From an uncultured Chitinophagales bacterium (GTDB taxonomy: Bacteria; Bacteroidota; Bacteroidia; Chitinophagales; JAHDHT01), in NCBI GenBank assembly GCA_938023075.1, contig CALHDG010000027.1, forward strand, positions 1 to 64,000: DNA of 64,000 bases, written 5' to 3'. The notes under the pieces were generated by a model, which was not told the origin of the DNA, did not search any database, and was given only the letters and a program-made list of their open reading frames with translations. A program made the position numbers and the translations under genes. This document shows positions 40,477 to 45,228 of this stretch, piece by piece; position 1 is the first letter of the stretch; each line of letters starts with the position of its first letter.

Positions 40477-41793
40477 TTAATCAATTACTAACTCCCCATA
40501 CAAATCAAAGTCACTGGCATCGGTTATGGTTACCTTGGCAAAATCACCAATGCGTACATAGTTTGTTGCCGCATCTACAATTACTTCATTGTCTACTTCT
40601 GGCGAGTCGTATTCTGTTCTGCCAATAAATTGATCGCCTTCTTTTCTATTAAATAATACTTTAAAAGTTTTACCAATTTTAGCTTGGTTCAATTCATCAG
40701 AAATTTCTTGCTGTACTTCCATTACTTCGGCGGCTCTTTGTTGTTTCACTTCTTCTGGCACATCATCAACCAAATCATATCCACTCGTACCTTCTTCGTG
40801 AGAGTAGGTAAACACCCCTAAGCGTTCAAAGCGTTGTTGCTCAATAAAAGTTTTCAATTCGTCTACATCTTTTTCGGTTTCTCCCGGAAAGCCGACTAAC
40901 ATGGTTGTTCTAATAGCAATTTCTGGAAGAATGTTTCTAATGTTTGAAATGAGTTCGATGGTATCTTCCCGGGTAATTTGTCGTTTCATATTATGCAACA
41001 CAGCATTGCTGGCATGCTGCAAAGGCATATCTAAATAATTACAAATATTATCGTGTTGTTTAATCGCCTCAATAATATCAATAGGAAATTTACTGGGATA
41101 AGCATAATGCAAACGAATCCATTCTAAACCTTCCACGGCGGCTAATTGATTTAACAATTCAGGCAAACTTCTTTTTTTGTAAATATCTAAACCATAATAC
41201 GTCAACTCTTGTGCAATTAGCATAATTTCTTTCACCCCTTTCTTCACTAAATTTTTAGCTTCAAAAACCAAATCTTCAATTGGGCGAGAAATGTGTTTGC
41301 CGCGCATTAAAGGGATGGCACAAAAAGCGCAAGTTCGGTTGCAACCTTCCGAAATTTTTAAGTAAGCATAATGTTTTGGAGTAGTTAAACCTTGCCGTTC
41401 GCCAATGAGTTCGTGTTTGTAATCGGCACCTAATTCTTTTAGTAGAAAGGGCAAATCCATGGTGCCAAACCAAGCGTTTACTTCGGGTATTTCTTGTTTC
41501 AAATCATCTTTATAGCGTTGCGATAAGCAGCCGGTTACGTATAATTTTTCAATGTCGCCTTTTGTTTTGGCATCGGCATAATTTAAAATGGTATCAATAC
41601 TTTCTTGCTTTGCCATATCAATAAAGCCGCAAGTGTTGACTACTACAATGTTAGCATTGTCATTGCTTTCGTGAACTACCTTTATGTCGTTGCCCTTCAA
41701 TTGACCAATTAAATTTTCGGAGTCTACTAAATTTTTAGAGCAACCTAAGGTGATGACGTTTACTTTATCTGTATTTGTTGTTTTGGTTTTCAA
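40477..41793 (-). CDS. rimO: ribosomal protein S12 methylthiotransferase RimO (TTG start)
   Basis: VITLGCSKNLVDSENLIGQL; KISEGCNRTCAFCAIPLMRGKHISRPIEDLV; C-terminal TRAM-like segment. Confidence 0.96.
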   Translation of the reverse strand: MKTKTTNTDKVNVITLGCSKNLVDSENLIGQLKGNDIKVVHESNDNANIVVVNTCGFIDMAKQESIDTILNYADAKTKGDIEKLYVTGCLSQRYKDDLKQEIPEVNAWFGTMDLPFLLKELGADYKHELIGERQGLTTPKHYAYLKISEGCNRTCAFCAIPLMRGKHISRPIEDLVFEAKNLVKKGVKEIMLIAQELTYYGLDIYKKRSLPELLNQLAAVEGLEWIRLHYAYPSKFPIDIIEAIKQHDNICNYLDMPLQHASNAVLHNMKRQITREDTIELISNIRNILPEIAIRTTMLVGFPGETEKDVDELKTFIEQQRFERLGVFTYSHEEGTSGYDLVDDVPEEVKQQRAAEVMEVQQEISDELNQAKIGKTFKVLFNRKEGDQFIGRTEYDSPEVDNEVIVDAATNYVRIGDFAKVTITDASDFDLYGELVID

Positions 41794-41796
41794 TGC

Positions 41797-42225
41797 TTAT
41801 GATACTTTGATAAAATTTTTATAGGGAACAAATTTAAATTTTGAGTGATAGTTATTTTTAAACTTAGCTATTTTATTTAAAATATTGGCTTGCCCCTTAC
41901 CAACTTTATTACACACAATGTAACTATATTTTAAAGCACTTTTATTTTGCGATAACATTTTTATGCTGTTTGATAATTGGTCTATGCCTTTTGAAAAATC
42001 GTGATTACTTTTAAACTCAATAAAATGCTCGTTTACATCTGCCAACAATAATTTGTCACATTGTTTGCCATCTTGTTCTTTCAATAAGCATTTATCAACT
42101 TTGTATTCTTCGCATTTCAACATTTTTTCATTAATTATTTCAACTGATTTATTGCTATCATCAGAATACACTCTAAATGATTTTTCACTTGTAGTTTGCA
42201 CTAAGCATTCATTTTTCAAACTCAT
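41797..42225 (-). CDS. small cassette protein A (142 aa), possible PD-(D/E)XK-like fold
   Basis: CDKLLLADVNEHFIEFKSNHDFSKGIDQL; overlaps the upstream ATPase stop by 4 nt. Confidence 0.7.
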   Translation of the reverse strand: MSLKNECLVQTTSEKSFRVYSDDSNKSVEIINEKMLKCEEYKVDKCLLKEQDGKQCDKLLLADVNEHFIEFKSNHDFSKGIDQLSNSIKMLSQNKSALKYSYIVCNKVGKGQANILNKIAKFKNNYHSKFKFVPYKNFIKVS

Positions 42226-43487
42226 TTAGTTGTTAATATTAAGTCGGAAAGTTCATCAAAAAGTTTGTAATCCATTTCGGAAACATTATCAATTAAGTTT
42301 TCGCCTATCAAATTAGTTTCCGGATCATTCAGATTTTCAACTTTTCCATTTGAAATTTGGTAAGCCAACATATCATCAGGTTTAACCATTGCATTTTCTG
42401 GACAATCTCCTACAAGTGTATCGGAATTTCTTAAAACTTCAATCACTTCTTTTTCTAAAGTATATTTACCATTTGCTAAATCGCCTGCTTGTGTAAATGT
42501 TGACATTGCTGAAAGTATATACGGACTGTGCGTAGTAATAAACAACCGCACATTACACTCATTAAACACAAACATCAGCAACTGCATTAGAGTAAACTGA
42601 AATTTTGGGAAAATATGTAGTTCCGGTTCTTCAAAAAACAAGTAGGTTTTTAGTTTGGATTTTCCTTTTTGATGCAACTTTTTCAAATAGGCTAAAACAG
42701 GTATTAATGCCTGCTCACCTGAGGAGGCATTGGTTAAAGCAACTCTTCTTCCATCATCATATACTAAATAATCTTCATCATTAATAAACTCTACATTGGC
42801 ATTGATGAGGGCTTTGGTAAAGGCATCGAAACTATTCGTTTCTTTTGAAAGTAGTGTTTCGTCTTCGTATTTAAATTGTTGGCGATGTTGTTGGTAAACC
42901 GATGAAAACTTTAGTAAAAAACGGTCAATAGCGGCTGGTACTTCATGGTTTTCTACCAATAATTTGATGTTCTTAATTAAGCTCGTAAATGAACGGGATG
43001 CTGGGATGAAAAAATTTGCGTTATGCACATCAACCCCTATCGCTTCTCCCATTTTTGAGAAATTTTCTTTATAAAATTCACCAATGTTAATTGATGGATT
43101 TAATTGCTGTAAAGGTTTTAAAGCACCTTTCAAGTTGTTTAAAAGTTGAGTTGCTTCAATAGCATCAGCTTCCACATGTAGTTTTTCATTTTGATTAATG
43201 ATAGCTTTAAAGTTGTGTCGCTCGTATTTTATTGTAAATTTATTTTTTATAAGATTGAGGTTAAATGTCTTTTTAAATTCTTGCTTAATAAATTCGGGGA
43301 AGTTTGAATTGTCATCAAACAGAGATGTTCTTATATAATTTAAAACAACCTCATTAAAAAAATAAACCAACTTAGCCACCACACTCTTACCACTCGCCTG
43401 CGGACCAATCAGCACAGTAATGCGGTTCAACTCCATTTCAAAGTTGCGTAAACCGGCAAAACCGTCGATGTAAATTTTTTCTGGCAT
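42222..43487 (-). CDS. ABC/OLD-like (AAA_15/21-type) ATPase A (421 aa)
   Basis: Walker A LIGPQASGKSVVAKLVYFF; signature ASSGEQALIPVLAYL; Walker B YLFFEEPELHIFPKFQ; LFITTHSPYILSA. Confidence 0.85.
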   Translation of the reverse strand: MPEKIYIDGFAGLRNFEMELNRITVLIGPQASGKSVVAKLVYFFNEVVLNYIRTSLFDDNSNFPEFIKQEFKKTFNLNLIKNKFTIKYERHNFKAIINQNEKLHVEADAIEATQLLNNLKGALKPLQQLNPSINIGEFYKENFSKMGEAIGVDVHNANFFIPASRSFTSLIKNIKLLVENHEVPAAIDRFLLKFSSVYQQHRQQFKYEDETLLSKETNSFDAFTKALINANVEFINDEDYLVYDDGRRVALTNASSGEQALIPVLAYLKKLHQKGKSKLKTYLFFEEPELHIFPKFQFTLMQLLMFVFNECNVRLFITTHSPYILSAMSTFTQAGDLANGKYTLEKEVIEVLRNSDTLVGDCPENAMVKPDDMLAYQISNGKVENLNDPETNLIGENLIDNVSEMDYKLFDELSDLILTTK

Positions 43488-43511
43488 ATTTAATCTTAAA
43501 GATAATAGTAT

Positions 43512-44003
43512 TTAGTTTAGTATGATTTTATTGGTTGACTTTTTTATTTGGAACAAAATTTTGCCTTTTTGTGCTTTATTGTATTTCTTTAAATTATCCT
43601 GCGCTTTGGCGTATAATTTCCTTTTCGGATTTCTAACTACGTAACCAAAATTGAATTTGTCTTTAACATTAAAATTTTGAACAGTGGAGATAATTTGAGT
43701 GAATGCTCCAGATATATCTCCTGATTTAAATTCCATAAAATGCATTTGTTGGATATCCCCATTATCAATAGCTTTTAGCTTCTTCTTATTTTTTGTATTA
43801 AAAACGACCAAAAGTGAATCGCAACTTTTTATACTTCCTTTTTTATCTATTAGTTGACAACTAATATCTACATCTAAACACAAGTATTGTTTAGCGTTAT
43901 CGAAGCTAAGTTTACCAACAAATTCATTAGGGTTTTCTTTTTTGTTTTTAACAACTATGTTTTTCTGATTTTTCAACTCACAGCAATCAGTTTTCCACTC
44001 CAT
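43512..44003 (-). CDS. small cassette protein B (163 aa), possible PD-(D/E)XK-like fold, paralogue of 41797-42225
   Basis: CDSLLVVFNTKNKKK...MHFMEFKSGDISGAFTQI; overlaps the upstream ATPase by 17 nt. Confidence 0.7.
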   Translation of the reverse strand: MEWKTDCCELKNQKNIVVKNKKENPNEFVGKLSFDNAKQYLCLDVDISCQLIDKKGSIKSCDSLLVVFNTKNKKKLKAIDNGDIQQMHFMEFKSGDISGAFTQIISTVQNFNVKDKFNFGYVVRNPKRKLYAKAQDNLKKYNKAQKGKILFQIKKSTNKIILN

Positions 44004-45228
44004 ATTGTATCTCCATTAGTTTATTAAATAGGTCAAAATCTTTATCACTTACTTCGTCAATAATATTTTCAGAGATTAAGCCAGTATCTTCATCATTGAT
44101 TTTTTTAGGTTTTCCGTTGGTAATTTGAAAAGCACTAAATTCTTTTGGATTAATTCTGCATTCTTTCGCAACCAACTCATCTAAGGCTTTCAATTTTTCT
44201 TTATTAAGATGTTTTTCCATTTCGCCCGCCTGTAATAAATTATTTAAATAAGTTAAAATATATGGACTATGGGTTGTAATGAAAAGCATACCATCCGAAC
44301 CAATTTTATTGAATACTGTTAATAGAAGTTTCAAAAGCAAATTTTGGAACTTTGGGAAAATATGTAATTCTGGTTCTTCAAATATGATACTTGCTCCATT
44401 TAGAGGTGATGTTTCATATAAAAATTTTAATTCCAATAAAACAGGCACCAACGCTTGTTCACCCGATGAAGCTTGCGTTAAAGCATTTCTTCTACCATCC
44501 TTATAAATTAGATAATCTTCATTATTAATGAATTCAATATCTGCCTTTAAAATTTTATCAATCAGAAGACTTACAATATTTCCTCCATTTGTAGTTAAAC
44601 TTTTATTTTGTTTTATATAATTATCTCTAATTTGATGATAAGTGGCAACAAATCGAGCCAAAAAAGTATCAATTGAAGATTGAATACCTTCATCAAATAC
44701 TTTCAACCTAATTTGTCTTACTTGGGTTAACAAAGCTCTTGATGCAGGTATAAATTTTACTTTATTAAGCAGACTAAGCATAGTGAAATGGTCTTTATAG
44801 TTTACACCTTTAAAACCAAATTGTTCTTTTAATAAATTGTAGAGACCGTCTTTCATCTTATTATAATCTGAATCTTTGTCATTCAAATTTTTTTCTACAC
44901 CATATAATTGTAAAGTTTTATTAAAGCCTGTGTTTTTTATTACATATTCAAATAATGAACTTTGGTATTTTATCTCAAAATCTTGATTAAAAACATTGGT
45001 ATGAAAAATTTTACTTAGTTCCTCTTGCGCCAACCGGTTAACTTCGGTACTTCCATATTTATCAAATTGCATTTCAAAGTGAAAAGGAAAGGTTCTACAA
45101 AAATAAACCAACTTAGCCACCACACTTTTACCACTCGCCTGCGGACCTATCAGCACCGTAACACAATTCAACTCCATTTCGAAGTGGTGTAAACCGGCAA
45201 AACCGTTGATGTAAATTTTTTCTGGCAT
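43987..45228 (-). CDS. ABC/OLD-like (AAA_15/21-type) ATPase B (413 aa), paralogue of 42222-43487
   Basis: Same motif set: LIGPQASGKS, ASSGEQALVPVLLEL, IIFEEPELHIFPKFQ, LFITTHSPYILTYL. Confidence 0.85.
   Translation of the reverse strand: MPEKIYINGFAGLHHFEMELNCVTVLIGPQASGKSVVAKLVYFCRTFPFHFEMQFDKYGSTEVNRLAQEELSKIFHTNVFNQDFEIKYQSSLFEYVIKNTGFNKTLQLYGVEKNLNDKDSDYNKMKDGLYNLLKEQFGFKGVNYKDHFTMLSLLNKVKFIPASRALLTQVRQIRLKVFDEGIQSSIDTFLARFVATYHQIRDNYIKQNKSLTTNGGNIVSLLIDKILKADIEFINNEDYLIYKDGRRNALTQASSGEQALVPVLLELKFLYETSPLNGASIIFEEPELHIFPKFQNLLLKLLLTVFNKIGSDGMLFITTHSPYILTYLNNLLQAGEMEKHLNKEKLKALDELVAKECRINPKEFSAFQITNGKPKKINDEDTGLISENIIDEVSDKDFDLFNKLMEIQYGVEN

What the first reader, a model, noticed from the sequence alone, without database searches (positions are those of the whole stretch)
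41797..45228. Tandem duplicated ATPase + small ExK-protein cassette: candidate undescribed defence-type system
Seen: four minus-strand ORFs arranged as (ATPase, small protein) twice. In each unit the ATPase end overlaps the small gene start (17 nt and 4 nt); the units are 24 nt apart. Both ATPases (413 and 421 aa) have Walker A GPQASGKS, signature SGEQAL, Walker B FEEPELHIFPKFQ and a THSPYIL motif, but they end ~90 aa later with no visible TOPRIM domain, unlike classical OLD proteins. Both small partners share CDxLL...hF(I/M)EFKS...Q, compatible with a minimal PD-(D/E)XK D...ExK core. Established: ABC/OLD-like ATPases paired with a nuclease occur in Septu, Gabija, PARIS and OLD-type immunity. 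Inference: a compact ATPase plus nuclease-like partner not matching those I can name, possibly with two units of different specificity.
Basis: partly seen in the sequence, partly recalled or inferred. Interest (0 to 1): 0.75.

Follow-up and report, generated by a model that had tools for sequence, protein, structure and literature searches.

The report
Widespread ATPase–mini-nuclease defence pair, duplicated
Two adjacent copies of a two-gene module, an OLD/PtuA-like ATPase plus a very small DNA-cutting-type (PD-(D/E)XK) nuclease, are present; the same pair occurs across at least ten bacterial phyla and at a proven anti-phage hotspot of P2-like prophages, so it is very probably a widespread, still untested anti-phage system.

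Summary
In detail: four minus-strand genes form two tandem ATPase–small-protein units (41797-45228). Each ATPase is ABC/OLD/PtuA-type without Toprim. The small proteins are true homologues despite ~28% local identity: a profile built without window sequences finds both and nothing else in the window. Across 118 family sequences D44, C56-D57, E70-x-K72 and Q83 are near-invariant. AlphaFold2 of one (pLDDT 91.9) shows a restriction-endonuclease-like topology, BspD6I nickase first in Foldseek (E 0.01). Pairing is essentially obligate: of 80 loci fetched by ATPase similarity alone, all 77 with downstream DNA carry the small gene, in at least ten phyla. This genome holds six intact units. Copies in 10 E. 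coli genomes (>=99% identical to a P2-prophage pair) lie, in the two examined, between replication gene A and portal gene Q, the published anti-phage hotspot where P2 carries old and tin. The family is partly catalogued as PADLOC candidate PDC-M29, which I found in no paper; both window units lie outside that clade and PADLOC misses one small protein. Best reading: ATPase sensor/scaffold controlling a minimal nuclease, like Septu or PARIS with another nuclease fold. Not shown: defence activity, substrate, trigger. 'Undescribed' is only partly right.

The parts
43987..45228 (-). Unit 1 gene A: ABC/OLD/PtuA-type ATPase, 413 aa, no Toprim
   Evidence: AAA_15 E 3e-18, AAA_21; PDC-M29A E 9e-29, AriA E 1e-23
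43512..44003 (-). Unit 1 gene B: small PD-(D/E)XK-like protein, 163 aa, 17-nt overlap with gene A
   Evidence: Family profile without window sequences E 2e-11; C-C-CD-FMEFK-Q pattern in alignment A1; no PADLOC or significant Pfam family
42222..43487 (-). Unit 2 gene A: ABC/OLD/PtuA-type ATPase, 421 aa, no Toprim
   Evidence: AAA_15 E 4e-22; PDC-M29A E 6e-28; AlphaFold2 pLDDT 88.6, pTM 0.90; Foldseek best Septu PtuA, retron PtuA, Rad50, OLD
41797..42225 (-). Unit 2 gene B: small PD-(D/E)XK-like protein, 142 aa, 4-nt ATGA overlap with gene A
   Evidence: PDC-M29B E 8e-9; family profile E 1e-24; AlphaFold2 pLDDT 91.9, pTM 0.88; Foldseek Nt.BspD6I nickase prob 1.0
45099..45228 (-). 5' block of unit 1 ATPase gene, 92% identical in DNA to the 5' block of unit 2 ATPase gene
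43356..43487 (-). Matching 5' block of unit 2 ATPase gene; beyond it amino-acid identity drops to about 10-40% per 20-codon block

Best explanation
Two tandem, diverged copies of a two-gene anti-phage system. Protein A is an ABC/OLD/PtuA-family ATPase (Walker A, signature, Walker B, THSP switch) that probably forms dimers or higher assemblies and acts as sensor and scaffold; protein B is a minimal (120-221 aa) PD-(D/E)XK-type nuclease whose D57...E70-x-K72 core is the predicted metal-dependent active site. The genes overlap and are probably translationally coupled so that B is made together with A and held in check or positioned by it. On infection A is thought to sense a trigger or a change in nucleotide or DNA state and license B to cut nucleic acid (most likely DNA, since most PD-(D/E)XK enzymes cut DNA), destroying the phage genome or killing the cell. 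Shown here: gene pairing, conserved catalytic pattern, predicted fold, patchy distribution, presence at a known prophage anti-phage hotspot. Inferred: physical complex, trigger, nucleic-acid target, abortive outcome.
For: Obligate pairing: of 80 loci fetched by the ATPase alone, 76 have B by the first-round profile and one more by the iterated profile; the other three end at or within about 150 nt of the A stop. 86 of 117 pairs overlap, 44 by exactly 4 nt. A and B distances are correlated (Mantel r 0.70, best of 2000 permutations 0.06). B conservation in 118 rows: E70 118, K72 116, D57 114 (E in the rest), Q83 113, D44 109, C7 109, C56 108. Fold; Foldseek hits include many PD-(D/E)XK enzymes (BspD6I nickase and R.BspD6I2, NucS, Mus81, RecU, a Holliday junction resolvase, Avs4). 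ATPase fold closest to PtuA of Septu and retrons, then Rad50 and OLD. A pair of the family is present at >=99% identity in 10 of 5426 E. coli genomes, all chromosomal; in IMG/VR contig L224 and the two annotated E. coli genomes examined it lies between P2 replication gene A and portal gene Q, the hotspot where P2 carries old and tin and where cloned systems gave phage resistance (PMC9122126). Another copy lies next to a prophage portal gene (L221). Patchy: 20 of 395 class genomes; the ATPase tree mixes phyla.
Against: No defence activity is known for any member as far as the held library shows. Foldseek matches of B are modest (E about 0.01, TM 0.43) and are mixed with clamp-loader hits of lower probability. 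Among the neighbours of chromosomal relatives the recurrent Pfam families are mostly housekeeping ones and each PADLOC family recurs in at most 5 of 132, so defence-island linkage is weak. The neighbours of the window cassette are not recognisable defence genes and no tRNA is near. A B. finegoldii plasmid copy lies in a glycan locus.
Confidence: 0.75

Rival explanations
1. Direct immunity: A binds invading or aberrant DNA ends like Rad50 or SbcC, and B is its nuclease, cutting phage or plasmid DNA only, without cell suicide and without a sequestered toxin.
For: Foldseek also finds Rad50 and Mre11-Rad50; B belongs to a fold class of mostly DNA enzymes.
Against: Structural matches rank PtuA of Septu and retrons above Rad50; the secondary structure of the ATPase model shows no long coiled-coil arm.
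Confidence: 0.3
2. B is a PARIS/Septu-like RNase or tRNase effector that stops translation when A releases it; the PD-(D/E)XK-like fold is used on RNA.
For: The closest working analogues cut tRNA: AriB of PARIS (PMC12409363) and Septu (PMC13096335, abstract). AriA models are among the best PADLOC matches of A.
Against: PD-(D/E)XK enzymes cut DNA in nearly all known cases (established knowledge); no RNA-binding feature was found or tested.
Confidence: 0.12
3. Not immunity: a DNA-repair or genome-maintenance ATPase-nuclease pair, or a mobile toxin-antitoxin-like addiction module maintained by its own spread.
For: Relatives often sit alone among housekeeping genes; an archaeal OLD ATPase (Cran1) works in the cell cycle (PMC12796447).
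Against: Patchy presence (20 of 395 class genomes), tree topology that mixes phyla, six intact divergent units in one genome, carriage in the P2 anti-phage hotspot.
Confidence: 0.12
4. The window units have lost function (relics), and the small proteins are only vestigial nucleases.
For: Unit 1 gene B is very divergent and carries an insertion between CD and ExK; a truncated solo gene B relic exists on contig C233.
Against: All four window frames are open, overlaps are kept, and the catalytic residues and Walker motifs are intact.
Confidence: 0.05

Closest known systems
PADLOC-DB phage defence candidate PDC-M29 (PDC-M29A + PDC-M29B)
   Same: Same two-gene order, homologous ATPase and homologous small protein; best PADLOC match of both window ATPases; one pair in this genome (contig C55) matches strongly (A E 3e-127, B E 3e-38)
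   Different: Window ATPases score 96-99 bits against 423 for the C55 copy, unit 2 B 34 bits, unit 1 B none; the clade holding C55 is separated by a long branch with support 100; PDC-M29 is a computational candidate for which I found no paper naming it
Septu (PtuA + PtuB) and the PtuAB effectors of retrons
   Same: ABC/OLD-type ATPase plus a small separate nuclease; closest solved structures to the ATPase (8eea, 8sux, 9n69 and others)
   Different: PtuB is an HNH-type nuclease; here the partner is PD-(D/E)XK-like; PtuA profile matches are weak
PARIS (AriA + AriB)
   Same: AAA_15/AAA_21 ATPase plus a separate effector gene; AriA profiles are among the best ATPase matches
   Different: AriB is a Toprim/DUF4435 protein (PMC9122126, PMC12409363); the small proteins here have no Pfam match and a different fold
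OLD nucleases, including P2 Old and Gabija GajA
   Same: ABC ATPase of the same superfamily; the E. coli P2-prophage copies of this family occupy the old/tin locus
   Different: Toprim domain absent; nuclease is a separate small PD-(D/E)XK-like protein
PADLOC candidates HEC-02, PDC-M47, PDC-M56
   Same: ATPases match their A models and a few B proteins weakly match their B models
   Different: Matches are weak (B E 8e-5 or worse); relation not resolved here

Membership tests
PDC-M29 (PADLOC candidate) | ATPase matches PDC-M29A | tested here: inconclusive
   E 6e-28 and 9e-29, 96-99 bits against 423 for the C55 copy; PADLOC's own thresholds not available
PDC-M29 (PADLOC candidate) | adjacent protein matches PDC-M29B | tested here: inconclusive
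   unit 2 B E 8e-9 (34 bits); unit 1 B no match up to E 1
PDC-M29 (PADLOC candidate) | same clade as the strong PDC-M29 matches | tested here: not met
   the 20-row clade holding the strongly matching C55 pair excludes both window ATPases, support 100
ABC/OLD-type ATPase superfamily (AAA_15/AAA_21) | Walker A, signature, Walker B, H-switch and family profile | tested here: met
   Pfam above cut-offs; motifs invariant or near-invariant in 60 sequences; fold
OLD nuclease (classes 1-3) | fused C-terminal Toprim domain | tested here: not met
   no Toprim match; about 90-95 aa tail after THSP
PARIS / OLD class 4 | partner gene with Toprim/DUF4435 | tested here: not met
   no significant Pfam match for either small protein or for 64 relatives
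Septu | HNH nuclease partner PtuB | tested here: not met
   partner has PD-(D/E)XK-like fold and D..ExK..Q pattern, no HNH or PtuB match
PD-(D/E)XK nuclease superfamily | D...(D/E)xK motif conserved | tested here: met
   E 118/118, K 116/118, D57 114/118
PD-(D/E)XK nuclease superfamily | restriction-endonuclease-like core fold | tested here: met
   AlphaFold2 pLDDT 91.9; Foldseek BspD6I nickase prob 1.0, E 0.01, TM 0.43; modest score, model only
PD-(D/E)XK nuclease superfamily | metal-dependent nucleic-acid cleavage | not testable with these tools
   needs biochemistry
Anti-phage system | protects against phage | not testable with these tools
   needs plaque assays; indirect support from the P2 hotspot

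The most novel reading that the evidence does not exclude
A distinct, widespread class of OLD/PtuA-like ATPase immunity, found in at least ten phyla, whose effector is a minimal PD-(D/E)XK nuclease with a conserved three-cysteine pattern (C7, C46, C56) that may bind metal or act as a redox or structural switch; PADLOC sees only part of it, and some bacteria stockpile diverged units (six intact here, two in tandem with a homogenised ATPase 5' end) as a repertoire of different specificities.
Probability: 0.4. Interest if true: 0.65.

Novelty: new variant of a known kind. Interest (0 to 1): 0.52.

Why it matters
If confirmed, it adds a small two-gene defence system of broad range, gives PADLOC's PDC-M29 candidate an effector identity (PD-(D/E)XK nuclease), shows that detection models miss much of the family (including P2-prophage pairs of E. 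coli), and offers a compact E. coli example (about 1.8 kb) on which the open question of how OLD-type ATPases control separate nucleases can be tested directly.

Tried and rejected
Viral-contig search with unit 2 ATPase alone found nothing; the alignment query did. No plasmid match for the small protein. Paper searches for PDC-M29, PDC-M2x and the E. coli accessions found nothing. Defence-island context was expected, but the neighbours of relatives show few recurrent defence families. Considered and rejected: PARIS or OLD (no Toprim), Septu (no HNH), chance resemblance of the small proteins (leave-out profile), A-B fusions (none among the hits). Empty-site test: in five order relatives ftsY (named by eye from its sequence) lies directly upstream of rimO, where the cassette lies here; the one same-family genome ends at that point, so insertion is suggested, not shown.

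Full report
OBSERVATION. Unit 1: ATPase 43987-45228, small protein 43512-44003 (17-nt overlap). Unit 2: ATPase 42222-43487, small protein 41797-42225 (ATGA, 4-nt overlap). The ATPases match Pfam AAA_15 and AAA_21 above the curated cut-offs and nothing Toprim-like; they are 41% identical. The small proteins match no Pfam family significantly and are only about 28% identical over 79 residues.

IS THE SMALL PROTEIN REAL AND THE SAME IN BOTH? Yes. I collected 118 sequences of the family (some near-duplicates), built a profile without the window sequences, and searched 151 window ORFs: only the two small proteins are hit, E 1e-24 and 2e-11. The residues conserved through the family (numbering of unit 2 B) are C7 (109 of 118 rows), N32 (104), D44 (109), C46 (96), C56 (108), D57 (114, otherwise E), E70 (118), K72 (116), Q83 (113).

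FOLD. AlphaFold2 of unit 2 B (22-sequence alignment) gives mean pLDDT 91.9, pTM 0.88, with core order strand-strand-helix-strand-helix-strand; strands 58-62 and 65-71 carry E70 and are flanked by D57 and K72. Foldseek against the PDB places the nickase Nt.BspD6I first (probability 1.00, E 0.01, TM 0.43), with R.BspD6I2, a Pyrococcus repair endonuclease (NucS), Mus81, RecU, an archaeal Holliday-junction resolvase and Avs4 further down; clamp-loader subunits appear between them with lower probability and large rmsd. The viral library gives phage restriction endonucleases and VRR-Nuc or RecU proteins among weak hits. I read this as a minimal PD-(D/E)XK-type nuclease, supported by motif and model together; each alone would be modest. 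The ATPase model (pLDDT 88.6, pTM 0.90) is closest to PtuA of Septu and of retrons, then Rad50 and OLD.

PAIRING. I fetched 80 loci with the ATPase alignment alone. 76 have the small gene downstream by the first-round profile, one more (L153) by the iterated profile; the remaining three (L149, L189, L194) are cut by the contig end at or within about 150 nt of the ATPase stop. 86 of 117 pairs overlap, 44 of them by exactly 4 nt; no fusion was seen. Distances of A and B are correlated (Mantel r 0.70, highest of 2000 permutations 0.06); shared phylogeny explains part of this. The loci come from Bacteroidota, Cyanobacteriota, Pseudomonadota, Campylobacterota, Bacillota, Planctomycetota, Verrucomicrobiota, Nitrospirota, Spirochaetota, Thermodesulfobacteriota and Armatimonadota, with the usual doubt about single metagenome bins.

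DISTRIBUTION. 20 of 395 genomes of the class have a match, but this genome has six intact pairs: two in the window and one each on contigs C16, C82, C55 and C273. They sit in different parts of the ATPase tree, while the two window copies are sisters (support 100). A decayed solo B relic lies on C233, with no ATPase remnant found. The tandem arrangement was seen only in this window among the loci held.

RECOMBINATION. The first 43 codons of the two window ATPases are about 90% identical in DNA with 28 of 33 identical synonymous choices, then identity drops abruptly to about 10-40% in amino acids per 20-codon block for some 180 codons. The block occurs only twice in the genome. Recent gene conversion at the 5' end is the simplest reading.

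CONTEXT. Housekeeping families dominate the recurrent Pfam hits among neighbours of relatives, and no PADLOC family recurs in more than 5 of 132 neighbours; the exact number of defence genes among them could not be read from the output. The strong functional clue comes from prophages. Two IMG/VR contigs (L222, L224) carry a pair; in L224 it lies downstream of a protein matching phrog_91 (nicking at origin of replication; P2 gpA) and next to oppositely oriented portal and terminase genes. The L224 pair is present at >=99% identity in 10 of 5426 complete E. coli genomes, all chromosomal, and in the two examined it lies between the replication endonuclease and portal genes of a P2-like prophage. 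Rousset et al. (PMC9122126) define the gpA-gpQ interval as a hotspot of anti-phage systems, holding old and tin in P2, with several cloned systems active against phages; they also note that other cargo occurs there, so location is strong but not decisive evidence. A third kind of IMG/VR copy (L221) lies beside a prophage portal gene.

WHAT IT IS CALLED. PADLOC-DB 2.0 holds phage-defence candidate PDC-M29 with A and B models. The window ATPases match PDC-M29A best (E 6e-28, 9e-29), unit 2 B matches PDC-M29B (E 8e-9), unit 1 B does not. All 60 ATPases of one alignment match PDC-M29A at 1e-10 or better, but only 47 of 64 B proteins match the main PDC-M29B model at 1e-3, and the B proteins of the E. 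coli, B. finegoldii and L221 pairs match none at 1e-5. The clade holding the strong PDC-M29 match of this genome (C55) excludes the window units (support 100). So the window units are divergent relatives of a named but, as far as the held library shows, untested candidate. That they are anti-phage is inference.

MECHANISM. Best reading (0.75 for the general statement): A is the sensor/scaffold, B the nuclease effector, as in Septu (PtuA + HNH PtuB) and PARIS (the AriA hexamer sequesters AriB and releases it on sensing a phage protein, PMC12409363). Whether B is restrained or activated by A, and whether it cuts phage DNA, all DNA, or RNA, is open; DNA is favoured only because of the fold class. 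The rival mechanisms listed (direct DNA immunity, tRNase effector) are partly sub-cases of the general statement and their probabilities overlap with it.

VERDICT. Real, conserved and probably a defence system; new variant of a known kind (OLD/PtuA-type ATPase plus separate nuclease) with a different effector fold; partly catalogued already.

Noticed in passing
window 45099-45228 and 43356-43487: 5' 130 bp of the two ATPase genes nearly identical including synonymous sites, then an abrupt drop: recent gene conversion or a recombination breakpoint.
   Followed up: partly
L055 6959-7316 (own genome, contig C233): Degenerate solo gene B relic of the PDC-M29 type, with broken frame and no ATPase remnant in the 15-kb stretch.
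   Followed up: partly
own genome contigs C16, C82, C55, C273: Four further intact units of the family from different tree branches; the genome has 43 AAA_15 matches in all.
   Followed up: partly
L224 5998-7745; E. coli NZ_CP031833 and NC_009801: E. coli P2-like prophages carry a pair of this family in the old/tin hotspot; the PADLOC models miss its B protein.
   Followed up: yes
L218 5806-7369 (NZ_OY725969, Bacteroides finegoldii plasmid): A pair of this family inside a glycosyltransferase / O-antigen gene cluster on a plasmid.
   Followed up: no
alignment A1, columns of C7, C46, C56 of P0001 (window 41797-42225): Three conserved cysteines in the small protein, role unknown (metal site or redox switch).
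   Followed up: no
L144 and L148: Nearly identical ATPases in a Sulfurovum bin and a Patescibacteria bin: probable binning contamination.
   Followed up: no
window 40477-41793: rimO starts 3 bp after the stop of unit 2 gene B; in several order relatives ftsY precedes rimO instead, suggesting insertion between them.
   Followed up: partly
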